Assembly (NCBI RefSeq): GCF_004348665.1
Contig: NZ_SMKM01000038.1
Coordinates: 1-32,645 of the forward strand
Direction: 5' to 3'
DNA length: 32,645 bases
Source of the DNA: Actinomadura sp. GC306
GTDB taxonomy: Bacteria > Actinomycetota > Actinomycetes > Streptosporangiales > Streptosporangiaceae
The notes below the pieces were generated by a model. That model worked only from the letters and a program-made list of their open reading frames with translations. It did no database searches and was not told the DNA's origin. The position numbers and the translations under genes were made by a program. Positions 4,300 through 18,489 of this stretch are shown here, piece by piece; the stretch's first letter is position 1; the number at the start of each line of letters is the position of its first letter.

Positions 4300-5090
4300 C
4301 GGGCCGCTCCCTTCCATGTGGCGTCGAGATGGGCGGTGATCGCCTCGGTGACCGGGCCGGGCCGCTCGGCGCCCGCGAGGTGCGCGGCCCCGTCGATGAC
4401 GGTGAGGCGGGCGCCGGGGATGCCGGCGGCCAGCCGGTCGGCGTGGCCGGCGGGCGGGGTCGGCCCGTCCTGCGCCCCGGCGATCACCAGGGTCGGCGCG
4501 GCGACCTCCCCGAGGCGGCCGGTGGCGTCGAACCGCGCGAGCGCCTCGCAGCAGCCCGCGTACCCCTCGGGGGAGGTGGCGCGGAGCATCGCGACGTAGG
4601 GTTCCGCGCCGGTGAACCCGGGGGTGAACCAGCGTCCGGCCGCCGTGTCCGCCACCGGCCCGACGCCCTCCCGGCGGACGAGCGCGGCCCGCTCGTGCCA
4701 CGGCCCCGGATCGCCGAAGCGCGGGGACGTGCAGCACAGCACGAGGCTCGCGACCCGCTCCGGAGCCCGGAGCGCTAGGGCAGTGCCGACGGCGCCGCCC
4801 AGAGATACCCCCGCGTACGCGACCCGCTCTTCGCCGAGGTCGTCCAGGAGGCGCAGGACGCCGTCGGCGAGGTCCTCCACGGTGAACGGGCCGGCGGGCG
4901 GCGGCGCGCCGCCGTGGCCGGGCAGGTCGAAGCGCAGCGTCCGCCGGCCGCGGTGCAGCGCGGGCAGCTGCGGCAGCCACAGGTCCATGGTCGTGCCGAG
5001 GGACGGGCCGAGGACGACGAGCGGCGCGCCGACCGGGCCGTCGAGGCGGTGCTGCGGCGGGGCTCCCGCCGGTACGGGCGCGGCGGTCAC
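4296..5090 (-). CDS. pcaD: 3-oxoadipate enol-lactonase (alpha/beta hydrolase)
   Basis: Hydrolyses 3-oxoadipate enol-lactone to 3-oxoadipate. The 264-residue protein is a typical alpha/beta hydrolase. It has LGPSLGTTMDLW and RFDLPGHG near the N-terminus, the nucleophile elbow GVSLGGAVG (catalytic Ser), the acid loop AGAQDGPTPP (Asp) and the late GAAHLAG (His). The GTG at 5090 overlaps the pcaB stop codon as GTGA, and its own stop overlaps the pcaC ATG as ATGA, so pcaB, pcaD and pcaC are coupled. Proteins of this family can be generic esterases, but the position between pcaB and pcaC makes PcaD nearly certain. Confidence 0.94.
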   Translation of the reverse strand: MTAAPVPAGAPPQHRLDGPVGAPLVVLGPSLGTTMDLWLPQLPALHRGRRTLRFDLPGHGGAPPPAGPFTVEDLADGVLRLLDDLGEERVAYAGVSLGGAVGTALALRAPERVASLVLCCTSPRFGDPGPWHERAALVRREGVGPVADTAAGRWFTPGFTGAEPYVAMLRATSPEGYAGCCEALARFDATGRLGEVAAPTLVIAGAQDGPTPPAGHADRLAAGIPGARLTVIDGAAHLAGAERPGPVTEAITAHLDATWKGAAR

Positions 5091-6286
5091 GGGCGGCTCC
5101 CCCGGTAGGCGTCGAGGGCCCGGTCGACGAGGGCGGCGGCGGCGCCGGCCCCCGGGTCGCCGCCGAGCACGTCCAGCAGGTCGCCGAGATCGGCGCCCAT
5201 CCGCTCGGGCGAGACCTCCAGGCCGCCGAGCAGCTCGGCGGCCGTCTCGGCGGCGCCGCCGGTGAGCCGCAGGCACTCGCGCAGCGGCTGCCACTCGGCG
5301 TGCCACTCCCCCGCCGGCCGCTCGTGCGGCGCGGCCTGCGCGGCCAGCAGGACCTGCACCTGCGCGGGGACCTGCAGCGCGGCCGAGCGGATCAGCGCGG
5401 ACAGGGCCGGGTTGCGCTTGTGCGGCATGGACGAGGAGCCGCCGCGGCCGGCCCCGGCGGGCTCGGCGGCCTCGCCGACCTCGCTCTGCGCCAGCAGCCA
5501 CACGTCGGTCGCGATCTTGCCGAGCGCCCCGGCGGTCAGCGCCAGCGCCGCCGCGAGCTCCGCGACCGGGGTGCGGCGGGTATGCCACGGCAGGACGGGA
5601 GCCGCCAGCCCCGTCTCCTCGGCGAAGGCCGCGACGAGGTCGAACGCCCGGTCGCCGAACGCGTCGAGCGTCCCGGCGGGGCCGCCGAGCTGCACCGGCA
5701 GCGGCACCGCGGCGAGCCGGCCGCGGGCGTCCAGGCAGCCCAGCAGCCAGTTCGCGGCCTTGGCGCCGAACGTCGTCGGCAGCGCCTGGCGGCCCAGTGT
5801 GCGGGCGGCCATGGGGGTGTCGCGGTACCGCGCCGCGAGCCCGGCCAGCGCGTCCAGTGCCCGGTCGAGGTGGGCGAGGACGACGCGCCTGGTCCGGGCC
5901 GCGACGAGCATGGCGCCGGTGTCGGCGATGTCCTGGCTGGTGGCGCCGTGGTGGACGTGCCGCCCGGCCGGCCCCGCGAGGGCTCGCAGGTCGGCGACGA
6001 GCGGCACCACGGGGTTGCCGGAGCCGCGCGCCCGGCGGGCCAGGTCCGCCGGGTCGAAGCGGCCCGCGTCCGCGGCGGCGGCGATCGCGTCGGCCGCGTC
6101 TCGCGGAATGATGCCGAGGCGGGCCTGGGCCCTGGCGAGGGCGGCCTCGGCGTCCAGCATCGCCGCGAGGTAGGCGGCGTCGCCCGTCGCGGCCTCGGCC
6201 TCGGTCCCCGCGCGGACGGGCGACAGCAGCCCCGTGTCGAGCGGGGGGGCGTCCGGCCGCGCGGGGCCGCGTCCGTCAGAAGCCAA
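5087..6286 (-). CDS. pcaB: 3-carboxy-cis,cis-muconate cycloisomerase
   Basis: Cyclises 3-carboxy-cis,cis-muconate to 4-carboxymuconolactone. It belongs to the fumarase/aspartase superfamily; the signature GSSSMPHKRNP is at about residues 283-293, and the other conserved regions are HHGATSQDIADTGAML and ARTLGRQALPTTFGAK. The N-terminal run PPLDTGLLSPVRAGT is typical for PcaB and fixes the frame. The best start is an unusual TTG at 6286, inside the last codons of pcaG (11-bp overlap), preceded by GGAGA about nine bases upstream; this gives 399 residues. No ATG or GTG lies in frame close to this point, so a leucine codon start is inferred rather than proven. It is followed directly by pcaD. Confidence 0.93.
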   Translation of the reverse strand: MASDGRGPARPDAPPLDTGLLSPVRAGTEAEAATGDAAYLAAMLDAEAALARAQARLGIIPRDAADAIAAAADAGRFDPADLARRARGSGNPVVPLVADLRALAGPAGRHVHHGATSQDIADTGAMLVAARTRRVVLAHLDRALDALAGLAARYRDTPMAARTLGRQALPTTFGAKAANWLLGCLDARGRLAAVPLPVQLGGPAGTLDAFGDRAFDLVAAFAEETGLAAPVLPWHTRRTPVAELAAALALTAGALGKIATDVWLLAQSEVGEAAEPAGAGRGGSSSMPHKRNPALSALIRSAALQVPAQVQVLLAAQAAPHERPAGEWHAEWQPLRECLRLTGGAAETAAELLGGLEVSPERMGADLGDLLDVLGGDPGAGAAAALVDRALDAYRGSRP

Positions 6287-6842
6287 GGAAGACCGTCTCC
6301 CCCTCTCCCTGCAGGCGGACGTCGAAGCGGTACCGCCGCTCCCCCTCGCGTGCGGCGACCAGGGTCGCGCGCCGCTCGGCGGGCACGGCGCCGAGCAGCG
6401 GGTCGGCGGCGTGCGCGGCCTCGTCCTCGGGGAAGTACAGCCGGGTGAAGACGGGCTTGAGCAGGCCGCGGGCGAAGACCAGGACGGCGATGTAGGGGGC
6501 GCCGCCGGCGGCCGCGCCGGGCTTGACGGTGCGGAACCAGTAGGCGCCGTCCGGGTCGGTGCCGCACCGGCCGAACCCGGAGAAGTCGTGGCCGTCCCGG
6601 ACGATGCCGCCCGGCCGCCGCGGGACCTCACCGTCCTCATCGGCGTGCCAGATCTCCAGCAGCGCGTCGGGGACGGGGTCTCCGGCGCCGTCCAGGACCC
6701 GGCCGCGGATCTCGATCGCTCCCGGATGCCAGCCCGGCACGACCTTCGGGCCGGTCTCGTACGGCAGCGCGTACCCGTAGAACGGGCCGACGGTCTGCGA
6801 CGGGGTGGGGCCGGGCACGCCCTCGTGGGAAGCGGTGGTCAT
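6276..6842 (-). CDS. pcaG: Protocatechuate 3,4-dioxygenase alpha subunit
   Basis: Non-iron-binding subunit of the intradiol dioxygenase that cleaves protocatechuate between its two hydroxyls to 3-carboxy-cis,cis-muconate. The 188-residue protein begins with TPSQTVGPFYGYALPY, a hallmark of PcaG, and continues with IEIRGRVLDGAGDPVPDALLEIW and FSGFGRCGTD. It lacks the Tyr/His iron ligands found in PcaH, as expected. The ATG at 6842 shares a base with the pcaH stop (TGATG). The stop is overlapped by the TTG start of pcaB. The enzyme works as a multimer of alpha-beta pairs with the product of the preceding gene. Confidence 0.96.
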   Translation of the reverse strand: MTTASHEGVPGPTPSQTVGPFYGYALPYETGPKVVPGWHPGAIEIRGRVLDGAGDPVPDALLEIWHADEDGEVPRRPGGIVRDGHDFSGFGRCGTDPDGAYWFRTVKPGAAAGGAPYIAVLVFARGLLKPVFTRLYFPEDEAAHAADPLLGAVPAERRATLVAAREGERRYRFDVRLQGEGETVFLGF

Positions 6843-7507
6843 CAGGTCTCCATCGGGGTGTCGCCGAGCACGATGTCCCACTGGTAGCCGAGCGCCCACT
6901 CGGGCTTGGTGGTGTCCATGTCGAAGCGGCAGACCAGCTTCTCGCGGTCCCGCTCGTCGGGGATCGACTGGAAGATCGGGTCGTAGGCGAACAGCGGGTC
7001 GCCCGGGAAGTACATCTGGGTCACGAGGCGCTGCGTGAACGCGGTGCCGAACACCGAGAAGTGGATGTGCGCGGGCCGCCACGCGTTGTGGTGGTTGCGC
7101 CACGGGTACGCGCCCGGCTTGATCGTCACGAAGCGGTAGCGGCCGTCGTCGTCGGTGAGGCACCGCCCGGCGCCGGTGAAGTTCGGGTCGAGCGGCGCGG
7201 GGTGCAGGTCGCCGAGGTGCGCGTACCGGCCCGCCGCGTTCGCCTGCCAGACCTCGACCAGCGTGCCGCGCACCGGGCGGCCGTGCGCGTCCAGGACCCG
7301 GCCGGTCACGATGATCCGCTCGCCGAGCGGCTCGCCGGGGTGCTGGACGGTGAGGTCATCGTCGCGCCGGCCGAGCTCCTGGTGGCCGAAGACGGGCGAG
7401 GTCAGCTCGACGTCGTCCGGGCCGAGCTTGGGCATGATCAGTTCTTGTGCGGGCGCCCGGAGCACGGTGCTCTTGTAGTCCGGGGACAGGTATGGAGGAT
7501 GCGTCAT
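6842..7507 (-). CDS. pcaH: Protocatechuate 3,4-dioxygenase beta subunit
   Basis: Catalytic, Fe(III)-binding subunit of protocatechuate 3,4-dioxygenase and first gene of the operon. In the 221-residue protein the four iron ligands can be placed: Tyr95 (AAGRYAHL), Tyr134 (PGAYPWRNHH), His147 and His149 (PAHIHFSVFG). Their spacing (39, 13 and 2 residues) equals that of Tyr408, Tyr447, His460 and His462 in the Pseudomonas enzyme as I recall it. The N-terminal PPYLSPDYKSTVLRAP is typical of actinomycete PcaH. The ATG at 7507 has GGAAGGG upstream. The 187-bp gap upstream, to the sigma factor gene, must contain the operon promoter. Confidence 0.97.
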   Translation of the reverse strand: MTHPPYLSPDYKSTVLRAPAQELIMPKLGPDDVELTSPVFGHQELGRRDDDLTVQHPGEPLGERIIVTGRVLDAHGRPVRGTLVEVWQANAAGRYAHLGDLHPAPLDPNFTGAGRCLTDDDGRYRFVTIKPGAYPWRNHHNAWRPAHIHFSVFGTAFTQRLVTQMYFPGDPLFAYDPIFQSIPDERDREKLVCRFDMDTTKPEWALGYQWDIVLGDTPMET

Positions 7508-8844: not shown

Positions 8845-11800
8845 TCAGGCCGGCAGCGACTCCAGCATCCGGCCGGCCTCCCCGGCGGCCTGCCGGTTGC
8901 CGGTCTTCCCGCACACGATGGCCGCCTGCGCCAGGTACTCCCGCGCCTCGTCCGGCCGGGCGAGGCCCAGGTGGATCCGGCCGAGCAGCAGCAGGCTCAG
9001 CCCGCGGCCCCACCGGTCGCCGATGTCCGCCTGGATCTCCAGGGCGGACAGGGCGTGCCGGCGGGCCTCCGGATGGCCGCCGCCGTCGGCGTGCGCGCGG
9101 GCGATGAGGTCGAGGGTGTCGGCCGCGCCGCGCCGGTCGCCGATCTCGGCGCGAATCTCCAGGGCCTGCCGGCCGTACTCCAGCGCCTTGCCGAGCTCGC
9201 CGCGCCGCCGCATGAGGCGCGCCAGCGTCGTCAGGCTGTCGGCCTCCCCGTGCCGGTCGCCGATCTCGCGGCGCAGCGCCAGCGCCCGGGTGACCAGCCC
9301 GAGCGCCTCGGCGCAGCGCCCCGCGTAGCGGTGGATGCGGGCGAGCAGGTCGAGGATCTCGCCCTCGCCGTACGGGTCGGCGGCCCCCCGGCGGATCCGC
9401 AGCGCCGCCAGCCCCGCGGCGAGGGCGGCCGCCTCGTCCCCGAGGCGCCAGCGGGCGTGCGCGAGGGTGCCGAGGCTGTCGGCCTCGCCGCGGCGGTCGC
9501 CGATCTCGCGGTGCAGCGCCAGCGCCCGCTCGGCCAGTTCGGCGGCGAGCTCGTTGCGGCCCAGCCGGCGGTGGTTGCTCGACAGGATGTCGAGGCACTC
9601 GGCCTGACCCTGCCGGTCGTCGGTGTCGGTGCGGATGCGCAGCGCGATCCCGGCGTGCCGCAGCCCCTTGCGGTACTGGGACAGGGAGTGGTGGATCCGC
9701 GCGAGGGTGGTGTGGGCGGCGCCCTCCGCGTCGAGGTCGCCGATCTCCCGCAGGACGGCGATGGCCTTGCGGGCGTGCTTGACCGCGGCCTTCAGCGCGC
9801 CGCGGCGGCGGCACACGTCGGCCAGCATGGTGCGCGTCCGGCCGGCCGAGGCGCGGTCCCCGATGGCCCGCTCGATGCGCAGCGCCTCCTTGAGGGCGCG
9901 CTGGGCGGCCGAGTACTGGGCGAGGCGCAGCCGGACGCGGCCGATGGTCTCCAGCGTCTCCGCCTCGCCGTAGCGGTCCCCGGTCGCGCGCTGGATCTCC
10001 AGGGCCGCGTTGAGGTGCCGCAGGCCGTCGTCGTGGCCGCCCAGCCGGCTCTCCAGCCGGCCGAGGAGCGTGCGGGCCTCCGCCTCGCCCGTCCGGTCGC
10101 CGATCTCCCGCTTGGCCTTCAGGACGGTGCGGGCGGTGCGCAGCGCGCGGGCGTACTCGGCCTGCCTGCGGTCGATGTGCGCGAGGGTGAGCAGGTCGTC
10201 GGTCGCGCCGGGCCGGTCGCCGGTCCGCCGGCAGATCTCCAGGGACTCCTCGGCGCACGCGCGGGCCTCGGCGTAGCGGGCGGTCCGCGCGTGGATGCGG
10301 GCGAGGATGTAGAGGGAGTGCCCCGCGCCCGCGAGGTCGCCGATCTCCCGCTGCACGGCGAGGGCCTCCTCGGCGCGGTCGCGCGCCTCGTCGTAGCGGC
10401 CCTGGTGCCACCGGACGAGCGCGATCGTGGCGATGCTCTCGGCGGCGCCGCGGCGGTCGCCGATCCCGCGGCGGATCCGCAGCGCCGCGGCGGCGTACCC
10501 GGCGGCCTCGCCGTAGCGGCCGGTGCGGATGGCGACCCGGGCGAAGACGTCCAGCGTCACGCCCTGGCCGGGCAGGTCGCCGGTCTCGCGCTGGAGCCGC
10601 AGCGCCTCCCCGGCGCGGGCGAGCGCCTCCTCGTGGTCGCCCATCCGGCATTGGATCCGGGCGATGGTGGCGAGGCTCTCGCCCTGCCCGATCCGCTCGC
10701 CGCCGCCCGCGCCCGCCCGGACGCCGATGGCGAGGGCGGCGCGGGCGTGGGCCAGGGCGTCGCGGTACCGGCCGGCGCCGCGTTCGATCTCGGCGAGGTT
10801 GTTCAGCGTCTTGCCGAGGCCGTGGCCGTCCTTCAGCGCGCGCTGCAGGGCGAGCGCCTGCTCGGCGTGCCGGCGGGCCCCGGCGTGCCGGCCGAGGCGC
10901 CGCTCCACCACGGCGATGAGGTTCAGGACCGAGGCAACGCCGTGCTCGTCGCCGGTCCGGCGCCGGATGGCCAGGGCGTGCCGCGCGCACCGGATCGCCT
11001 CCTCGTAGCGTCCCGCGTCGTGGTGGAAGGCGGCGATCGTGGAGAGCGCCTCGTCCTCGCGGTACAGGTCGCCGATGTCGCGGCTGATCCGCAGCGCCCG
11101 GTCGGCCCGGTCGAGCGCGTCGCGGCGGTCGCCGAGGGTCTGCAGCACCCGCGCGTGGCTGATCAGGCTCATCGCCACGCCGGCGAGGTCGCCGATGTCC
11201 TCGCGGATGCGCATCGCCTCCTGCGCGCGCAGGAGGGCCTCCCGGAGCCGGCCGCTGCGGCGCAGGGTGCGGGACATGCTGTCGAGGACCTCGCCCTGGC
11301 CGCGCAGGTCGCCCAGGCGCACGTGGACGGCGAGGGCCAGCCGCGCGTAGTGCAGGGCGCGGTCGGTCCTGCCGAGGCGCCGCAGGATCCTGGAGATCAT
11401 CTCCAGGGCGGCGGCCTCGCCGGCGCCGCCGTGCAGTTCGCGGTGGACGCGCAGGGACTCGCGGGCGTGCGCCAGCGCGGTCCGGTAGTGCGCGAGCCGC
11501 CAGTGCACCTGCGCCACCTGCTCGTATCCCTGGCCGAGGCCGTGCCGGTCCCCTTCGAGGGTCAGGATCCACAGCGCGTGCTCGCCGTACTCCAGCGCCT
11601 CCCGGTAGCGGCAGCGCTGGCGCTCGACGCGGGAGCGGGTGTTCAGCGCCCAGGCGGCCAGCCGGTGGTCGCCGAGGTCGGTGAAGATCTCGTAGGCGGC
11701 CCTGGCGTCCTCGGCGGCCTCGGCGTGGTTGCCGCGGTCGCAGTGCACGACGGCCAGCTGGTCGAGCATCCGGGCCTCCCAGTGCCGGTCGCCGGCGGCG

Positions 11801-13296
11801 CGCGCCGCGGCCAGGCCGAGCCGGTGGACCTCCAGGTTCTCGGCGCCGTGCTTGTCGCGCCGCAGGAGCTGGAACAGCGCGTCGGCGAACTGGTACGCCG
11901 GCGCGGGCCCGCCCGGCCCCGCGGCCCGGCGGGCCATCGCCACCACCGCCGCCCGCTCCTCCTCGAACCACTTCAGCGACGCCGCGGCCCTGCGCGGGGA
12001 CACCGCCGCCGCGCCGGACTCCGGGCCGGCCGCCGACGGCGCGATCGCCGCGGCGGCCTCGCGGACGCGGGTCAGGTACCGGCCCAGCAGCCGCCGGACG
12101 GCCGTGTCGGCGGCCGCGCCGTCCTCGCGGGCGAGGCGCTCGGCGGCGTACTCGCTCAGCATCTCGTGCATGCGGTACCGCCCGACCTTGCCGTACTCGA
12201 CCAGGTGCCGCCGGACGAGCCGGCCCAGCAGCCGCCGGGCCTCCTCGACCGGCACGGCGAGCAGCGCGGCGAGGCTGTCGGCGCCGAAGTCGTAGCCGTG
12301 CAGGAGGCCGAGCATCCGGAAGACGCCCTGCTCGCGCGGTTTCAGGCTGTCGTAGGACAGGTCGAACGCGGTGCGCAGGGCGAGCCCGGCGTCGCCGTCG
12401 AGAGCGAGGACGTCGAGCCGGCGGCCGCCGGTCAGCTCCTTCACCAGGGACGTCACGGACTCGAAGCGCCCCGAGGCCAGCCCGACCGTCGCGATCCGGA
12501 TGGCCAGCGGCAGCCGCGCGCACGAGTCGGCGAGGTCGGCGACCGCCTGCGGTTCGCGCTCGCCGCGCCCCCCGCCGAGCAGCCGCGCGGCGAGCTTCCA
12601 GGAGTCGGCGATGGTGAGCGGGGCGACCGGCACCGAGAACGCGCCGAAGCGGGCGGCGAGCCCTTCCAGCAGGGCGCGTCCCGTCGCCACGACCAGGCAG
12701 CCCTGGCCGCCGGGGACCAGCGGGGCGATCTGCTCGGTGTCGGCCGCGTTGTCGAGGACGACCAGGACGCGGCGGTCGGCGACCAGGGACCGGAACAGCG
12801 CGGCGCGGCGCGCCTCGTCCCCGGGGATCTCGGACGCGGCCAGGCCGAGGTCGAGCAGGAGCTGGAACAGCGCCTGCGCGGGCGGCGCCGCGTCCGGGGA
12901 CAGCCCGTGCAGGTCGAGGAAGACCTGGCAGTCGAAGTAGCGCCCGTTCTGGTGGGCCCAGTGCAGGACGAGCGACGTCTTGCCGACGCCGGCCATGCCG
13001 TGGACCTGCACCACGGTCGCCGAGCTCTGCCCCGCGGCCGCGCGGGCGGCGTCCAGCTTCGCCAGCTCCTCCTCCCGCCCGACGAAGTCGCGGGGCGCCG
13101 CGGGCAGCTGCCGGACCGGCGGCACGAACCGCTGCGGGGCGAGGTGGACGGTCTTGTCGCGGACGATGTCCCCGCCTACGCGGACGGGTGCGTGGAAGTG
13201 GTTCGCGAGCGGGTCTGCTGTCGTGGTCGGGTCTGCTGTCGTGCTCGGCTCTGGAGTTGTGATCGGGTCTGGTGTCATGTCCGGTTCTCGTGACAT
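8845..13296 (-). CDS. NB-ARC STAND ATPase with about 24 TPR-like repeats
   Basis: A 1483-residue STAND protein. Residues 1-30 are a repetitive Thr/Pro/Asp linker; residues 32-52 (NHFHAPV...KTVHL) form a short motif before the NTPase; DFVGREEEL opens the NB-ARC module. The P-loop GMAGVGKTS is at 100-108, Walker B RVLVVLD at 177-182, then CLVVATGR, the GLPL-like LPLAIRIA and the MHD-like MHEMLSEYA. From about residue 505 to the end follow about 24 repeats of 40 residues of the form IGDRxGEAxxLxxLARxxRRLGRYxEALxxAxxAL, TPR-type superhelix units. There is no DNA-binding or enzymatic effector domain, unlike SARP regulators with similar cores. The ATG at 13296 has a strong GGAGG; an ATG eight codons earlier lacks one. 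It is divergent from another giant STAND gene. The likely role is sensing or scaffolding by oligomerisation; the function is unknown. Confidence 0.9.
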   Translation of the reverse strand: MSREPDMTPDPITTPEPSTTADPTTTADPLANHFHAPVRVGGDIVRDKTVHLAPQRFVPPVRQLPAAPRDFVGREEELAKLDAARAAAGQSSATVVQVHGMAGVGKTSLVLHWAHQNGRYFDCQVFLDLHGLSPDAAPPAQALFQLLLDLGLAASEIPGDEARRAALFRSLVADRRVLVVLDNAADTEQIAPLVPGGQGCLVVATGRALLEGLAARFGAFSVPVAPLTIADSWKLAARLLGGGRGEREPQAVADLADSCARLPLAIRIATVGLASGRFESVTSLVKELTGGRRLDVLALDGDAGLALRTAFDLSYDSLKPREQGVFRMLGLLHGYDFGADSLAALLAVPVEEARRLLGRLVRRHLVEYGKVGRYRMHEMLSEYAAERLAREDGAAADTAVRRLLGRYLTRVREAAAAIAPSAAGPESGAAAVSPRRAAASLKWFEEERAAVVAMARRAAGPGGPAPAYQFADALFQLLRRDKHGAENLEVHRLGLAAARAAGDRHWEARMLDQLAVVHCDRGNHAEAAEDARAAYEIFTDLGDHRLAAWALNTRSRVERQRCRYREALEYGEHALWILTLEGDRHGLGQGYEQVAQVHWRLAHYRTALAHARESLRVHRELHGGAGEAAALEMISRILRRLGRTDRALHYARLALAVHVRLGDLRGQGEVLDSMSRTLRRSGRLREALLRAQEAMRIREDIGDLAGVAMSLISHARVLQTLGDRRDALDRADRALRISRDIGDLYREDEALSTIAAFHHDAGRYEEAIRCARHALAIRRRTGDEHGVASVLNLIAVVERRLGRHAGARRHAEQALALQRALKDGHGLGKTLNNLAEIERGAGRYRDALAHARAALAIGVRAGAGGGERIGQGESLATIARIQCRMGDHEEALARAGEALRLQRETGDLPGQGVTLDVFARVAIRTGRYGEAAGYAAAALRIRRGIGDRRGAAESIATIALVRWHQGRYDEARDRAEEALAVQREIGDLAGAGHSLYILARIHARTARYAEARACAEESLEICRRTGDRPGATDDLLTLAHIDRRQAEYARALRTARTVLKAKREIGDRTGEAEARTLLGRLESRLGGHDDGLRHLNAALEIQRATGDRYGEAETLETIGRVRLRLAQYSAAQRALKEALRIERAIGDRASAGRTRTMLADVCRRRGALKAAVKHARKAIAVLREIGDLDAEGAAHTTLARIHHSLSQYRKGLRHAGIALRIRTDTDDRQGQAECLDILSSNHRRLGRNELAAELAERALALHREIGDRRGEADSLGTLAHARWRLGDEAAALAAGLAALRIRRGAADPYGEGEILDLLARIHRYAGRCAEALGLVTRALALRREIGDRHGEADSLTTLARLMRRRGELGKALEYGRQALEIRAEIGDRRGAADTLDLIARAHADGGGHPEARRHALSALEIQADIGDRWGRGLSLLLLGRIHLGLARPDEAREYLAQAAIVCGKTGNRQAAGEAGRMLESLPA
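8850..11815 (-). repeat. About 24 in-gene repeats with a strict 120-nt period
   Basis: The TPR part of the NB-ARC gene repeats at DNA level. A core resembling GGTCGCCGATCTC recurs at exactly 120-nt steps, for example at 9015, 9135, 9255, 9495, 9735, 10095 and 10335. The phase is kept from about 9001 to 10600, shifts by 12 nt in the unit at about 10681-10810, and is then kept again to about 11790. Segments 9235-9297 and 9475-9537, exactly 240 nt apart, match at 55 of 63 bases by my count. Confidence 0.85.
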
Positions 13297-13300
13297 GGCC
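13211..13300 (-). repeat. Five 18-bp tandem units at the start of the NB-ARC gene
   Basis: Units at 13211, 13229, 13247, 13265 and 13283 are variants of GGGTCTGCTGTCGTGGTC (plus strand). The first two differ at one base; later ones are more diverged. In the gene they encode six-residue blocks (DPTTTA-like) forming the N-terminal linker. The last unit contains the start codon at 13296 and the one before it holds a second in-frame ATG. The period of six codons means that copy-number change would keep the frame. Confidence 0.8.
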
Positions 13301-13506
13301 GGCCCCCGCCTCCCTGTCATGATGGGTGCTTCAAGCAGACCTTCTGAGCAGGGCGTTCACAACACCTCCTCCAATGCCCGTACAAGGCCGTACACGCCCT
13401 GGATCCCGATTCGGGGCCGGACGTATGTCATGTGCCATATACGGCGCGGCCGTCCCGTGTGTGAATCGGGGTGTCGGACGGCATCCGGGTCGCCGTGGGG
13501 GTTCAG
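13297..13506. promoter_or_regulatory. Divergent promoter region of the two STAND genes
   Basis: This 210-bp gap separates the two divergent STAND genes and must hold both promoters. It contains a direct repeat CCGTACA at 13378-13384 and 13388-13394 (10-bp period) and a dyad CGTAT-N12-ATACG at 13422-13443, whose right arm overlaps TATACG, a possible -10 for the plus-strand gene. No convincing -35 was found. GC content is locally lower than in the flanking genes. Individual sites are tentative. Confidence 0.45.
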
Positions 13507-16500
13507 ATGGTGCTGCGCAACCCGTCCAGGAGCGGAGCGGAGGCGCCGGACCCCCGGCGCGTCGTGACGCGGCAGGACTTCGCGCGTGAGCTGACGATGC
13601 TGCGCGAGCGCGCCGGGCTGACGGTGCGGGACGTCGCGCGGGAGGCGGGCATCCCGCAGGCGAGCGCGGGCGACTACTTCGCCGGGCGGCACCTCCCGCC
13701 GCTGCGGCCGGCGCGGCTCCCGGCGCTGCTGCGCGCGTGCGGGGTGACCGCCGCGGAAGAGGTCGAGGCGTGGCAGGAGGCCCTGCGCAGGGTGCGCCGG
13801 ACGCCGGGGCGGCGCCCGGCGGTCGTCCCGTACCGGGGGCTCGCCCGGTACGAGACCGAGGACTCCGCGTGGTACTTCGGCCGGGAGGCGCTGACCTCGG
13901 TGCTGGCCGGGCGGGTGCGGGCGCTGGAGGGCCGCGGCGCGATCGTGGTCGTCGGGCCGTCCGGCGCCGGGAAGTCGTCGCTGCTGCGCGCCGGGCTGAT
14001 CCCCGCGCTGCGCGAGGACACCGGGGTCGTCCTCCGCACCGCCGACGAGATCGGCGCCGGCGACGTGGCCGGGCTGTGCGCCGGGGGCGCGGCGGTGGTC
14101 GTGGTCGACCAGTTCGAGGACGTCTTCACGGGCCGCTCCGACGCGGAGGCCGACGACCTGGTCACCGCCCTGCTGGAGCTGCCCGCCACCGTGGTGGCGG
14201 CGCTGCGGGCCGACTTCTACGGGCGGGCGCTGCGGCACCCGGGGCTGGCCCGCGTGCTGCAGGCCGAGCAGGTCGTGGTCACGCCCATGAACGAGGACGA
14301 GCTGCGCCGCGCGATCGTCGCGCCGGCGCAGCGGGCCGGGCTGGAGCTCGAACCGGGGCTGGCGGACCTGCTGCTGCACGAGGTCAGCCCGGGGCCGGAC
14401 GCCGGGGCGGGCGCCGCGCACGAGACGGGCACGCTGCCGCTGCTGTCGCACGCGCTGCTGTCGACGTGGGAGCGGCGCCGGCACGGGACGCTCACGATCG
14501 CCGACTACCGCGACAGCGGCGGCATCGCGGACGCGGTCGCCGCCACCGCGGAGGAGGTCTACCGCGGCCTGGACGAGGACGAGCGCGGCACCGCGCGCCG
14601 GCTGTTCCTGCGGCTGGTCCACCTCACCGGCGACACCGGGGTGACGCGGCGCCGGGTCGCCGAGCGCGAGTTCGGGGAGGAGGGGCGCGACGTCCTGGAC
14701 CGGTTCGTCCGGCAGCGGCTCGTCACCGCCCGCGCCGACGGCGTCGAGATCGCGCACGAGGCGCTGCTGTTCGCCTGGCCCCGGCTGCGCGGCTGGCTGG
14801 ATGCCGACCGGGCCGGGCTGCGCACGCACCGCCGCGTCACCGAGGGCGCCCTGGCGTGGGAGGAGTCGGGCCGCGACCCCGGCGCGCTCCTGCGCGGCGC
14901 GTGGCTGGCGGAGGGCGAGGAACTGGCGGCCGACCCGCGGCGCGGCGGCGGGCTGAATGATTTGGAGCGCCGCTTCCTGGCCGCGTCGGCCGAGCAGCGG
15001 GACGCGGAGGCGCGGGCGACGCGGCTGCTGGTGCGGCGCGGCCGGCGGCTGATCGCGGTGCTGTCGGCGGTGTCCCTGGTGACGCTCGGGCTCACCGGGG
15101 TCACGCTGCGCCAGCGGCACGCCGCCGACCTGCAGGCCGCGGCGGCCGACGCGCAGCGCGACATCGCGGTGTCCCGGCAGGCCGCGATCGAGTCGGCCGG
15201 GCTGCGCGACGAGGACGTGGCGCTCGCGGGCCTGACCGCGCTCGCGGCGTACCGCGTGGCGCCCACGCCGGAGGCGCGGGCCGCCCTGCTGGAGTCCTAC
15301 GCCGGCCCGGCCGCGACCCGCATCGCCGGGGCGCGCGGGATCCTGCAGGCGGTGGCGGCCGGCGCGGACGGCCGCACCCTCGCCGCCGCGGGCGCCGACC
15401 GCGCGGTCCGGCTCTGGGCCGTCGCGGACCGCGGCCGCATCGCGCCGGCCGGGCCGCCGGTGACGGGGCATCCCGACACCGTGTACGGCGTGGCGCTCGG
15501 GCCGGACGGCGAGACGCTCGCCAGCGGGGGCGGCGGCGGGACGGTCCTGCTCCGCCGCCCCGGCGAGGCCCCGCGCCCGCTCACCGGCCCGCGCGACACC
15601 GTGTACGCGGTGGCGTTCAGCCCGGACGGGCGGACCCTCGTCGCGGCGAGCGCGGACAAGACCGTCCGCGCGTGGGACGTCGCCGACCCGGAGCCGGGCG
15701 GCCGCGTGCTGGCCGAGGCGTCCGCCGCCGCGCACAGCGTGGCGTTCGGCCCCGACGGCGGGACGCTCGCCGCGGGCTTCGCCGACGGAAAGGTCCGGCT
15801 TGTGGACCTGGAGCGCGGCGAGCCCGCCGGGCGCCCGCTCGAGGCGGGCGGGCTGACCGTCCACGGGGTGGCGTTCAGCCCGGACGGCGGGACGCTCGCG
15901 GCGGGCAACGCCGACGGGACCGTCCGGCTGTGGCGGATGGACGGCTCCGCGGCCGTCCCCTCGGGCCGTCCGCTGGAGGCGTCGGAGCAGTGGGTCAACG
16001 GGGTGGCGTTCTCCCCGGACGGCCGGTCCCTGGCGGTGGCCAGTTCCGACGGCCGGGTCCGGGTGTGGGACGCCGCCGCCCGGACCGTCACCGCGACACT
16101 GCCGCATCCGGGTCCCGTGACGGCGGTGGCGTACCTGCGGCCGGGGTCGCTCGCCACCGCCGCGTCCGACGGCACGGCGCGGATCTGGGACGTCCCCGGG
16201 CCGGTCATCGAGGGCCCCGGCAAGGACATCTTCGCCATGTCGCTGAGCCGCGACGGGCGGGTGCTCGCGGTGGCCGGGGCGGACGGCACGGCGCGGCTGT
16301 GGTCGGTGGCCGACCCGCGCCGGCCGGCGCCGCTCGGGCCGCTGATCGAGCGGGCGGCCGGGTCCGGCACGGCGTCCGGCGCCGCGGCGCTGAGCCCGGA
16401 CGCCGGGACGCTCGCGATCGGCACGCGCGGCGGCGAGACGCGGCTGTGGGACGTGCGCTCCCCCGCCCGCCCGGCCGGGCTCCCCGCGCCGCTCACCGGG

Positions 16501-17247
16501 CCGCGCGAGCTCGTCCAGGGGCTCGCCTTCGCGCCCGGCGGCCGTCTCCTCGCGGTGTCGAGCAACGACCGGAACGTGTACCTGTGGGACGTGAGCGACC
16601 CGCGCGAGCCGGTGCGCACCGCCACGCTCACCGGTGCGACCAACTACGCCTACCAGGCCGCGTTCAGCCCGGACGGCCGCACCCTCGCCTACGGCACGGC
16701 CGACAGCAAGGTCCACCTCTGGGACGTCACCGACCCGCGTGCCCCGGTACGGCTGGGGCCGCCGCTGGCCGGCCACGAGGGCTATGTGTTCGCCGTGCTC
16801 TTCAGCCCGGACGGCCGGACCATGGCCACGGCGGGCGCCGACAACTCGGTCGTCCTGTGGGACGTCCGCGACCGGGCGCGCCCGCGGCCCCTGCCCCGGC
16901 GCCTGCACGGCCCCGCGAACTACGTGTACTCGCTGGCCTACGGCCCGGACGGCGTCCTCGCGGCGGCGGCCGGGGACGGGAGCGCCTGGCTGTGGGACAC
17001 CGCCGACCCGTCCGAGCCGCGCCACCTGGCGACGCTGACGGGCTCCGCCGAGAGCCTCTACATCGACGTCGCCGTCCCGGAGCGGCCGCTCCTCGCCACC
17101 GCGGGGGTGGGCCGCGAGGTGCGGCTGTGGACGCTGGACCCGGAGGAGGCCGCCGCGCGGGTCTGCGCCACCGCCGGAACCCCGGTCACCGCGGCGGAGT
17201 GGCGGCGCTACCTGCCGTCCGCGTCCTTCGACCCGCCCTGCCGGTGA
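13507..17247 (+). CDS. HTH-nSTAND1 NTPase-transmembrane-WD40 protein
   Basis: A 1246-residue multidomain STAND protein. An XRE-like HTH is at residues 23-65 (FARELTMLRERAGLTVRDVAREAGIP). The nSTAND1 NTPase starts at about 115 (PYRGLARYETEDSAWYFGRE), with P-loop GPSGAGKSS at 150-158 and Walker B VVDQFED at about 199-205. The winged-helix-like lid ends near residue 500. One predicted membrane helix lies at 515-534 (LIAVLSAVSLVTLGLTGVTL), followed by a charged helix. From about residue 600 there are 14 WD40 blades, counted by their LWDV-type ends, enough for two seven-bladed propellers. The C-terminus (WRRYLPSASFDPPC) is a tail common in such actinomycete proteins. The ATG at 13507 follows GGGGG by five bases; a GTG 12 codons upstream is the alternative. 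It is probably a membrane-anchored signal sensor; its partner and output are unknown. Confidence 0.9.
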   Translation: MVLRNPSRSGAEAPDPRRVVTRQDFARELTMLRERAGLTVRDVAREAGIPQASAGDYFAGRHLPPLRPARLPALLRACGVTAAEEVEAWQEALRRVRRTPGRRPAVVPYRGLARYETEDSAWYFGREALTSVLAGRVRALEGRGAIVVVGPSGAGKSSLLRAGLIPALREDTGVVLRTADEIGAGDVAGLCAGGAAVVVVDQFEDVFTGRSDAEADDLVTALLELPATVVAALRADFYGRALRHPGLARVLQAEQVVVTPMNEDELRRAIVAPAQRAGLELEPGLADLLLHEVSPGPDAGAGAAHETGTLPLLSHALLSTWERRRHGTLTIADYRDSGGIADAVAATAEEVYRGLDEDERGTARRLFLRLVHLTGDTGVTRRRVAEREFGEEGRDVLDRFVRQRLVTARADGVEIAHEALLFAWPRLRGWLDADRAGLRTHRRVTEGALAWEESGRDPGALLRGAWLAEGEELAADPRRGGGLNDLERRFLAASAEQRDAEARATRLLVRRGRRLIAVLSAVSLVTLGLTGVTLRQRHAADLQAAAADAQRDIAVSRQAAIESAGLRDEDVALAGLTALAAYRVAPTPEARAALLESYAGPAATRIAGARGILQAVAAGADGRTLAAAGADRAVRLWAVADRGRIAPAGPPVTGHPDTVYGVALGPDGETLASGGGGGTVLLRRPGEAPRPLTGPRDTVYAVAFSPDGRTLVAASADKTVRAWDVADPEPGGRVLAEASAAAHSVAFGPDGGTLAAGFADGKVRLVDLERGEPAGRPLEAGGLTVHGVAFSPDGGTLAAGNADGTVRLWRMDGSAAVPSGRPLEASEQWVNGVAFSPDGRSLAVASSDGRVRVWDAAARTVTATLPHPGPVTAVAYLRPGSLATAASDGTARIWDVPGPVIEGPGKDIFAMSLSRDGRVLAVAGADGTARLWSVADPRRPAPLGPLIERAAGSGTASGAAALSPDAGTLAIGTRGGETRLWDVRSPARPAGLPAPLTGPRELVQGLAFAPGGRLLAVSSNDRNVYLWDVSDPREPVRTATLTGATNYAYQAAFSPDGRTLAYGTADSKVHLWDVTDPRAPVRLGPPLAGHEGYVFAVLFSPDGRTMATAGADNSVVLWDVRDRARPRPLPRRLHGPANYVYSLAYGPDGVLAAAAGDGSAWLWDTADPSEPRHLATLTGSAESLYIDVAVPERPLLATAGVGREVRLWTLDPEEAAARVCATAGTPVTAAEWRRYLPSASFDPPCR

Positions 17248-17290: not shown

Positions 17291-17788
17291 CTAGAACTCG
17301 AAGCCGCCGGGGCGGCCGTTGCGGTCGGCGATGAGCCCGGCCAGGGTCGCGATCGCGATCTCCGCCGGGGTCCGCGACCCGATGTTGAGGCCGATGGGCC
17401 GGCGGACCCGCGCGATGTCCGCGGCGGGGACGCCGAGCTCGGTGAGCGCCGGGATGTGCGGCGCGGGATGGCGGGGGTTGCCCATGACGCCGACCCAGCG
17501 GACAGGCTGGGTCAGGACGTCCCGCAGCACCGGGCCGAGCTCGGGCCGGTGGTGGTCGGTGACCACGACGTCGGCCGTCGCGTCGAGGTGCGGCAGGTCG
17601 GTGACGCCGCCGCGGTCCTTGTCGGGGTCGACGAGGACGGTGCGGTAGCCGAGGTCGGCGCCGTAGCGCAGCAGGTGCTCGGCGACCCGGCCGGCGAACA
17701 CCGCGACCAGCGTCCGCTCCGCCGCGTCCGCCGGTGCGTCGCCGTGCGCGACGGCGCAGGACGGGTCGGTCTCGTGCGGTGTTCCCAT
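17291..17788 (-). CDS. XdhC/CoxI-type Rossmann-domain protein
   Basis: A 165-residue protein matching the C-terminal Rossmann domain of XdhC/CoxI proteins. It has VAVFAGRVAEHLLRYGADLGYRTVLVDPD, then VVVTDHH and the hallmark RPIGLNIGSRTPAEIAIATLAGLIADRNG at the end. XdhC proteins help insert or sulfurate the molybdenum cofactor of xanthine or CO dehydrogenases. This copy lacks the N-terminal XdhC_CoxI domain and no molybdenum hydroxylase gene is in the window, so its partner is unknown. The ATG at 17788 has only a weak GGGG ahead of it. It faces the nSTAND1 gene (43-bp gap) and is divergent from the stress protein gene. Confidence 0.8.
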   Translation of the reverse strand: MGTPHETDPSCAVAHGDAPADAAERTLVAVFAGRVAEHLLRYGADLGYRTVLVDPDKDRGGVTDLPHLDATADVVVTDHHRPELGPVLRDVLTQPVRWVGVMGNPRHPAPHIPALTELGVPAADIARVRRPIGLNIGSRTPAEIAIATLAGLIADRNGRPGGFEF

Positions 17789-17893
17789 ACCCCGCAGTCT
17801 GCCCCGCGCGGACGCGGCCGGTCCAGCGGCCGCACCGGTTGCGGAAAGCCCGATTTCCCCGGCGCGAGACCCTTCCGCGGGGACGGGTATGCC

Positions 17894-17909
17894 TGCACCC
17901 TAGAGTGCA
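17894..17909. promoter_or_regulatory. Inverted repeat over a candidate -10 of the stress-protein operon
   Basis: TGCAC-N6-GTGCA is a perfect 5-bp dyad lying 26 bp upstream of the GTG at 17935. It encloses TAGAGT (17901-17906), a plausible -10 hexamer on the plus strand; no good -35 is visible, so activator-dependent or ECF-type initiation is possible. A protein bound here would cover the -10 element. Confidence 0.4.
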
Positions 17910-17934
17910 CATCCAGGCGGGCTCGGGAGGAACC

Positions 17935-18489
17935 GTGATCACGAGACCGGAGGGCGGGCCCCGCGTCGTGGTCGGGGTGGACGACTCGGCGGGCGGCCGC
18001 GGCGCCCTGTCCTGGGCGATCGGCGCGGCCCGGCTGCGCGGGCTGCCGCTGCTGGTCGCCCACGCCGCGCCGCTGCCGCCGCACGTGTCGGCGGCGGGGC
18101 AGCTCGGCTGCGGCGTCACCGACGCGCTGCGCGCGTCCGGCGCCGAGCTCATCGCCCGGGTGCTCGGCGACGTGTGCGGCGGGCCGCCCGAGGGCGTGGA
18201 GATGACGGCGCTGGCGCTGGTGGGCGAGCCGGGCGCGGTGCTGGTGCGGCTCGCGGGCGACGACGACATCCTCGTCGTCGGGCACGGGACGCGCGGCCCG
18301 TTCTCGCGGCTGCTGCGGCCGTCGGTCCGGCTGCACTGCGCCCGGCGGGCGCGGGCGACGCTCGTCTGCGTGCAGACCCCCTCGTTCGACACGATCCTGG
18401 AGCGCCTGGCCGTGGGGGACGAGACGCCCGGTCACGAGACCGGCTCCCGGTTCCGGCGGCTGGGCCGCCGGCTGCGCCACCCGCTGTGA
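17935..18489 (+). CDS. Universal stress protein family (UspA-like), degenerate ATP motif
   Basis: A 184-residue single-domain Usp. The N-terminus RVVVGVDDSAGGRGALSWAIGAARLRGLPLLVAHA is the typical first strand and helix with the conserved Asp. The C-terminal part DDILVVGHGTRGPFSRLLRPSVRLHCARRARATLVCV aligns with the ATP-binding segment G-2x-G-9x-G-S, but the second Gly is Thr and the third is Pro, so ATP binding is doubtful. After it come about 35 extra basic residues. The GTG at 17935 is preceded by GGGAGG four bases upstream. Its stop overlaps the next gene as GTGA, so the two are probably co-translated. Usp proteins respond to starvation or redox stress in the cytoplasm; the role here is unknown. 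Confidence 0.85.
   Translation: MITRPEGGPRVVVGVDDSAGGRGALSWAIGAARLRGLPLLVAHAAPLPPHVSAAGQLGCGVTDALRASGAELIARVLGDVCGGPPEGVEMTALALVGEPGAVLVRLAGDDDILVVGHGTRGPFSRLLRPSVRLHCARRARATLVCVQTPSFDTILERLAVGDETPGHETGSRFRRLGRRLRHPL

What the first reader, a model, noticed from the sequence alone, without database searches (positions are those of the whole stretch)
8845..17247. Divergent pair of giant STAND NTPases, one soluble NB-ARC-TPR and one membrane-anchored HTH-nSTAND1-WD40
Two STAND ATPases of 1483 and 1246 residues, of different NTPase clades, share a 210-bp promoter region. One has a long TPR superhelix and no effector domain. The other has an HTH, a membrane helix and two likely beta-propellers. 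Each has a sensor array, but neither has an obvious toxic or enzymatic output, so they may act together: a membrane sensor and a cytosolic scaffold forming a signalling or defence device. The pairing is seen; joint function is inference.
Basis: partly seen in the sequence, partly recalled or inferred. Interest (0 to 1): 0.7.

Follow-up and report, generated by a model that had tools for sequence, protein, structure and literature searches.

The report
Two-gene STAND module, motif-tagged NLR-like receptor
Two very large signalling ATPase genes lying head to head in an Actinomadura genome are kept, lost and relocated as a pair, and one of them carries a short docking tag that relatives share with the tail of a neighbouring cyclase-like protein, so the pair looks like part of an immune-receptor-like switch rather than two unrelated genes.

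Summary
Confirmed: 8845-13296(-) encodes a 1483-aa NB-ARC protein with 24 TPRs; 13507-17247(+) encodes a 1246-aa HTH-nSTAND1-TM-WD40 protein; 210 bp lie between. At this site 52 Actinomadura loci with both flanks hold both genes (5, one pair broken) or neither (47); one further contig keeps only a broken P0001. Of six NB-ARC-TPR genes at least 50% identical in 40 genomes, five adjoin an nSTAND1-WD40 gene, two at other sites; 0 of 39 next-closest loci do within 3 kb of sequence held. "No effector" overlooks a 23-residue N-terminal motif in P0001. In A. barringtoniae and A. soli a class III cyclase-like protein, overlapping the P0001-type gene by 4 bp, ends in a similar motif. This is the layout of amyloid-type NLR/effector signalling, with an effector type I did not find described in the searches made. 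No such effector was found in this window; the rest of the genome was not searched for one. Best reading: an NLR-like receptor signalling in trans, controlled by a membrane STAND partner. Function untested.

The parts
8845..13296 (-). P0001: NB-ARC protein with 24 TPRs, 1483 aa
   Evidence: orthologues 70-87% identical
13138..13206 (-). N-terminal docking-type motif of P0001, residues 31-53 (ANHFHAPVRVGGDIVRDKTVHLA)
   Evidence: present in P0001-type proteins; similar motif at C-termini of cyclase-like proteins
12097..13086 (-). NB-ARC/AAA_16 region of P0001, about residues 71-400; Walker A and B intact by eye
   Evidence: sequence
8884..11775 (-). 24 TPR units of 40 aa, residues 508-1471
13297..13506 (.). 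210-bp divergent intergenic region
13378..13394 (-). direct repeat TGTACGG-N3-TGTACGG upstream of P0001, candidate operator
   Evidence: present with 0-1 changes in 5 orthologous intergenic regions (window included) and with 1-2 changes upstream of P0001-type genes at two other sites
13507..17247 (+). P0002: HTH-nSTAND1-TM-WD40 protein, 1246 aa
   Evidence: orthologues 74-88% identical
13561..13806 (+). HTH region of P0002, about residues 19-100
   Evidence: alignment with relatives; no Pfam row seen for it
13822..15036 (+). nSTAND1 NTPase region of P0002, about residues 106-510; Walker A and B intact by eye
   Evidence: 354.5 bits; sequence
15049..15105 (+). predicted transmembrane helix, residues 515-533, Arg-rich on its N side
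   Evidence: a comparable helix in 26 of 26 genus relatives with a callable gene and 8 of 8 plasmid relatives examined
15319..17211 (+). WD40 region, modelled as two beta-propellers

Best explanation
P0001 and P0002 form one co-inherited signalling module. P0001 works like an NLR: TPRs receive a signal, the NB-ARC NTPase switches and oligomerises, and the clustered N-terminal motif (residues 31-53) recruits a separate effector that ends in the same kind of motif, by homotypic (probably cross-beta, amyloid-like) contact. In two relatives of the module that effector is a class III cyclase-like protein, in one of them with a Crp-like cNMP sensor; here it would have to be encoded elsewhere in the genome. 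P0002 is the membrane partner: cytoplasmic HTH and nSTAND1 NTPase, one TM helix, and two WD40 propellers probably outside; it senses at the envelope and controls P0001, by transcription from the shared region, by contact, or both. Shown by computation: domains, pairing, motif sharing, 4-bp gene overlap in two relatives, purifying selection. Inferred: oligomerisation, amyloid contact, topology, direction of control, biological role (defence or regulated death).
For: Both or neither gene in 52 of 52 anchored loci with both flanks: 5 pairs (one broken), 47 empty. Pair recurs at other sites: divergent in G037 (A. barringtoniae), same strand with the effector between in G026 (A. soli). 5 of 6 P0001-type genes (at least 50% identity, window included) in 40 genomes are paired; 0 of 39 next-closest NB-ARC loci have an nSTAND1 gene within 3 kb of sequence held. 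A motif model from 7 P0001-type N-termini hits 49 of 175 cyclase-family proteins above 8 bits, 47 of the 49 at the C-terminus; reversed and shuffled sets 0. In both P0001-type loci with a linked effector its start overlaps the P0001-type stop by 4 bp. Five cyclase-family proteins continue into an AAA_16/NB-ARC-like ATPase (Pfam scores of the two rechecked lie below cut-off, E about 5e-6). Effector model matches class III cyclases. dN/dS 0.37 and 0.36 between window and A. livida. In G043 both genes are frame-broken while flanking genes are full length; in G061, whose contig lacks P0002 in the 2.5 kb held, P0001 lacks its start and changes frame.
Against: No motif-bearing effector was detected in the window or in the four named orthologous loci, which hold about 5 kb beyond P0001 and up to 10 kb beyond P0002; the rest of the genome was not searched for one. 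Joint loss of two adjacent genes can be one deletion, so both-or-neither is weaker than it looks; carriers are a few related species. 126 of 175 cyclase-family proteins have no detectable tag, and the sets were fetched with tagged queries. With the receptor-only model the A. soli effector tail scores just 11.4 bits (E 0.5). The first 60 residues of P0001, which hold the motif, are its least constrained part (dN/dS 0.60), and the window motif lacks one residue of the common form. HTHs of P0002 and of the two paired relatives at other sites are only 31-34% identical while the upstream repeat is similar, so the repeat may not be P0002's site. G016 has a P0001-type gene with no nSTAND1 gene in the 9 kb held upstream, its nearest P0002 relative lying on another contig. 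The usual catalytic Asn of class III cyclases is mostly replaced (by eye; role recalled). Amyloid formation, topology and any phenotype are untested.
Confidence: 0.5

Rival explanations
1. Local regulator and target: P0002 is a membrane-bound transcription factor that binds the shared intergenic region and controls P0001 (and itself); the proteins never touch.
For: P0002 has an HTH. nSTAND1-WD40 genes often sit divergent to other genes: 16 of 26 genus loci have a divergent upstream neighbour by a crude gene caller, and 7 of 8 Streptomyces plasmid loci do, with varied neighbours (lasso peptide gene, acyltransferase, SH3 protein and others). A 17-bp direct repeat is conserved in the intergenic region.
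Against: The repeat, with two changes, also precedes a P0001-type gene with no nSTAND1 neighbour held (L157), and only a four-change variant precedes the non-divergent one (L127); HTHs differ. A purely local target would not need to stay beside P0002 in same-strand order (L127).
Confidence: 0.25
2. Direct hetero-complex: the two STAND proteins co-oligomerise at the membrane as a sensor-scaffold.
For: Co-inheritance and recurrence; both Walker motifs intact by eye.
Confidence: 0.12
3. Chance neighbours kept by synteny in a conserved pca/acyl-CoA region; each has its own function.
For: In the four named orthologous loci the whole neighbourhood is syntenic.
Against: The flanks stay in 47 loci where both genes are absent together; pairing recurs at other sites.
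Confidence: 0.08
4. P0001 is an AfsR- or HaaT-like regulator of secondary metabolism.
For: NCBIfam HaaT 515.5 bits and AfsR 406.3 bits; many NB-ARC relatives carry SARP/BTAD domains.
Against: Both far below their cut-offs (1125 and 1430); no SARP or BTAD domain in P0001; no biosynthetic cluster recognised among the window genes scanned.
Confidence: 0.05

Closest known systems
Bacterial amyloid NLR signalosomes (BASS motifs with Bell-domain effectors; Dyrka et al. 2020, known to me here only through passages of PMC7889193, PMC9815663, PMC8086366, PMC12261475)
   Same: NB-ARC/TPR receptor with a short N-terminal motif repeated at the C-terminus of a protein encoded next door; overlapping genes in two relatives; actinobacteria
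   Different: Effectors beside relatives are cyclase-like (with or without a Crp-like part), not Bell, CHAT or TIR; no linked effector found for the window copy; a second, membrane STAND protein is part of the module. Whether the motif is one of BASS1-10 could not be tested
HTH-nSTAND1-WD40 proteins of actinobacteria (nSTAND1 is Pfam PF20703)
   Same: P0002 has the full architecture including the TM helix
   Different: P0002-type genes pair with a giant NB-ARC-TPR gene; most other members examined have other neighbours
AfsR / HaaT / FxSxx_TPR NB-ARC-TPR proteins
   Same: NTPase and TPR homology
   Different: Scores below cut-offs; no SARP domain; 24 TPRs; motif N-terminus
Apaf-1 (NB-ARC plus two WD40 propellers; CARD recalled)
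   Same: Foldseek matches P0002's propellers to Apaf-1 at TMq 0.53, the highest TMq among the 50 rows shown
   Different: P0002 has an nSTAND1 NTPase, an HTH and a TM helix; propellers are common and the match is not evidence of kinship
Pycsar (recalled: cyclase plus cNMP-sensing effector)
   Same: Cyclase fold and cNMP-binding domain in the motif-bearing family
   Different: PADLOC Pycsar matches cover only the cNMP-binding part, and the cyclase-only protein has none; here both parts are in one protein tied to an NLR

Membership tests
BASS-type amyloid NLR signalosome | STAND/NLR receptor with N-terminal short motif | tested here: met
   P0001 residues 31-53, present in P0001-type proteins
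BASS-type amyloid NLR signalosome | Same motif at the C-terminus of an effector encoded by an adjacent gene | tested here: not met
   Not found in the window or the 4 named orthologous loci; found in relatives L115 and L127 and beside 6 of 39 control NB-ARC loci above 8 bits
BASS-type amyloid NLR signalosome | Bell-domain effector (less often CHAT or TIR) | tested here: not met
   Nine effectors beside relatives were scanned: no Bell, CHAT or TIR domain in Pfam; five have cNMP-binding parts; one was modelled and is cyclase-like
BASS-type amyloid NLR signalosome | Motif belongs to BASS1-10 profiles | not testable with these tools
   Profiles and Dyrka 2020 not held
BASS-type amyloid NLR signalosome | Motif forms amyloid / prion-like foci | not testable with these tools
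   needs experiment
HTH-nSTAND1-WD40 family | nSTAND1 NTPase above Pfam cut-off | tested here: met
   354.5 bits, cut-off 27.1
HTH-nSTAND1-WD40 family | TM helix between NTPase and WD40 | tested here: met
AfsR (NF053617) | curated score and SARP/BTAD domain | tested here: not met
   406.3 of 1430 bits; no BTAD
HaaT (NF041717) | curated score | tested here: not met
   515.5 of 1125 bits
NsdA-family regulator (NF053720) | curated score | tested here: inconclusive
   96.7 bits over cut-off 75, best stretch on TPR residues 1194-1392; a repeat match is likely
Known anti-phage system (PADLOC) | match to a named defence gene | tested here: not met
   Only generic TPR and HEAT-ARM_XIII models, the latter on WD40 residues

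The most novel reading that the evidence does not exclude
A three-part signalosome that I did not find described in the papers searched: a membrane STAND protein with outside propellers licenses a giant TPR NLR, which nucleates, through a shared 20-residue amyloid-like tag, a class III nucleotidyl-cyclase-like effector, often carrying its own cNMP sensor. NLR sensing is thus wired to second-messenger signalling; in the window lineage the effector has moved to trans or been replaced by P0002 itself.
Probability: 0.3. Interest if true: 0.85.

Novelty: new variant of a known kind. Interest (0 to 1): 0.6.

Why it matters
Bacterial NLR-like proteins mostly lack known outputs (my view from the reviews read in passages). 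A short tag that ties NB-ARC-TPR receptors to cyclase-like effectors gives a simple testable output (cyclic nucleotide made, or filament formed, when the receptor is switched on), and the recurrent membrane STAND partner suggests how such receptors may be coupled to the cell surface in filamentous bacteria.

Tried and rejected
Simple sigma-70-type promoters and terminators at 13280-13560: none. Known defence genes: none in PADLOC beyond generic repeats for P0001 and P0002. tRNA or Rfam families in the window: none. Chance synteny as sole cause: rejected by the both-or-neither count and by recurrence. Fast-evolving sensor repeats: not seen in the TPRs; in the window-livida comparison TPRs (dN/dS 0.33-0.34) evolve no faster than NB-ARC (0.38), though WD40 (0.34-0.45) is above nSTAND1 (0.26) and the TM-linker is at 0.92. 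Repeat as P0002's own operator: left open; HTHs differ between paired relatives. A perfect period-10 heptamer repeat occurs in 2.9% of random 200-bp windows, so the variant repeat in L127 is weak evidence; in latina, bangladeshensis and L157 that generic scan picked other repeats. Start codons of some orthologues used are approximate. Plasmids: P0002 relatives in 226 records, all under 60% identity, at most 40.2% in the 15 listed; P0001 relatives in 47 records, none covering 80%. Phages: P0002 only, 3 records, 28% of the query. Papers on cyclase effectors joined to NLRs by amyloid motifs: none recognised in the listings; this covers only the held open-access library and only titles and abstract starts of the rows listed.
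Full report
What is there. The window is one whole contig (C321) of a 7.08-Mb, 554-contig genome; the four named loci found by scanning species genomes with P0002 are all Actinomadura. P0001 (8845-13296, minus) has NB-ARC/AAA_16 and 24 TPR units of 40 aa. P0002 (13507-17247, plus) has an HTH region, nSTAND1, one TM helix and WD40 repeats. A model of P0002 from residue 575 on has pLDDT 85.9 and matches two-propeller proteins, among them AIP1 and Apaf-1. The neighbours are ordinary: protocatechuate, acyl-CoA and related metabolic genes, an ECF sigma factor and XdhC.

Is the pairing more than synteny? Four named species (A. livida, latina, bangladeshensis, madurae) have both genes, but there the whole region is syntenic. 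I therefore used the sigma gene as an anchor: 64 of 65 genus genomes have a match, counting the window's own; I fetched 57 of the other 63 and left out the six weakest (G003, G011, G017, G030, G044, G053). In 52 of the 57 a right-flank gene is also held: 5 have both genes (G031, G032, G043, G047, G048), 47 have neither, none has one. The five without a right flank are G004, G016, G034, G056 (neither gene held) and G061 (P0001 remnant only). G004, next to the window on the tree, has its contig break at the sigma gene; its best P0002 and P0001 matches anywhere are 43% and 39% pieces. In G043 both genes lie in pieces in several frames, with P0002's first 280 residues unmatched, while sigma, pcaH, pcaB and the acyl-CoA dehydrogenase are full length. 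In G061 the 2.5 kb held beyond a truncated, frame-shifted P0001 is unrelated sequence. Both are draft assemblies, so error or misassembly is not excluded. On a three-gene tree carriers fall in more than one place among non-carriers (branch supports not inspected), and identities fall with relatedness, which suggests old inheritance with joint losses.

Recurrence elsewhere. In 40 genus genomes (window included) the NB-ARC part of P0001 finds six places at 50% identity or more, then a step down to 45% and less. Five of the six have an nSTAND1-WD40 neighbour: the window, G031 and G032 at this site, and, at other sites, G037 (divergent) and G026 (same strand); the sixth, G016, has none in the 9 kb held upstream and its contig ends downstream. 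The 39 control loci cover 40 of the 42 places ranked 7 to 48. None has an nSTAND1 hit within 3 kb; four (L180, L181, L190, L195) have one further off, the nearest at about 3.5 kb. In at least four of the 39 (L159, L170, L182, L184) the contig ends within 3 kb of the NB-ARC hit, so absence there is partial. In 48 family genomes other than the window's own (47 of other genera), no match at E 1e-70 or better exceeds 44% identity. Other nSTAND1-WD40 genes also adjoin regulators: of 31 such loci fetched, 26 had a callable gene with an nSTAND1 hit, and 5 of the 26 have a divergent NB-ARC protein next door (L115 is of the P0002 type; L119, L122, L123, L145 belong to one group sharing a downstream ORF of about 218 aa). 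These loci were chosen by similarity to P0002, so the rate is not a genus average.

The motif. P0001-type proteins have a short conserved segment just before NB-ARC. A model from eight segments, one of them an effector tail, found copies at the C-terminal end of ORFs beside NB-ARC genes. Rebuilt from seven receptor N-termini only, it scores the A. barringtoniae neighbour (L115) at 26.3 bits (E 1.1e-5, within its last 22 residues) and the A. soli one (L127) at only 11.4 bits (E 0.5); among the 39 control loci six have such a neighbour above 8 bits (L158, L159, L160, L162, L164, L167), all within the ten loci ranked closest to P0001, and L161 has a weaker one (5.3 bits). Among 175 proteins of the effector family returned score above 8 bits and 47 of these end within 14 aa of the C-terminus; reversed and shuffled sets give 0. 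So 126 of 175 lack a detectable tag, and both searches started from tagged proteins. Nine effectors were scanned: five have a cNMP-binding domain, two of these also HTH_Crp, four have no Pfam match. The cyclase region of the L115 effector models at pLDDT 87.4 and matches class III cyclases; two Asp positions are invariant in the alignments but the usual Asn is mostly absent (by eye; roles recalled). In L115 and L127 the effector start overlaps the P0001-type stop by 4 bp. Five family members (P0026, P0030, P0039, P0109, P0166) continue into an AAA_16-type ATPase with a Walker A behind the cyclase region; for the two rechecked, the Pfam scores are below the curated cut-off.

Relation to known systems. 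Passages of reviews and method papers describe bacterial amyloid signalling motifs at NLR N-termini and at C-termini of Bell, less often CHAT or TIR, effectors (PMC7889193; PMC9815663; PMC12261475; PMC8086366). The first of these has no occurrence of 'cyclase'. Passages of PMC7159879 describe cNMP cyclases in other NTP-dependent conflict systems of multicellular bacteria. Passages of PMC10907252, PMC8195603 and PMC4886424 were also read. The primary BASS paper is not held.

Regulation. A TGTACGG direct repeat lies 98 bp upstream of P0001, is present with no or one change in five orthologous intergenic regions (window included), and recurs with one or two changes upstream of the P0001-type genes in L115 and L157; L127 has only a four-change variant. 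Sites with at most two changes number 34 in 2.6 Mb of partly redundant held sequence.

Verdict. The pair is a real evolutionary unit in the sample examined. The best-supported mechanism is NLR-like, tag-mediated signalling in trans, with a membrane STAND partner. The missing piece in this genome is the effector.

Noticed in passing
L119, L120, L122, L123, L126, L141, L145: A second group of nSTAND1-WD40 genes is accompanied by a conserved ORF of about 218 aa (75-85% identical); three members scanned gave no Pfam match. The divergent partner differs (SARP/BTAD-NB-ARC, HTH-NB-ARC, BTAD only).
   Followed up: partly
L058:1-2500: In G061 a GPP34-like ORF and a Band7-like ORF (named by eye, no search) abut a P0001 remnant lacking its N-terminus.
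   Followed up: no
window 5087-7507: pcaH and pcaB lie here, but no alpha subunit of protocatechuate dioxygenase was recognised between them, and the pcaB frame has about 130 extra N-terminal residues.
   Followed up: no
window 17291-18480: The XdhC_C domain and the conserved sequence next to it lie in different frames of the same strand.
   Followed up: no
L203: On a Streptomyces plasmid an HTH-nSTAND1-WD40 gene is divergent from a lasso peptide gene set.
   Followed up: no
L134 (own genome, C182): Two further NB-ARC genes lie in tandem on one small contig.
   Followed up: no
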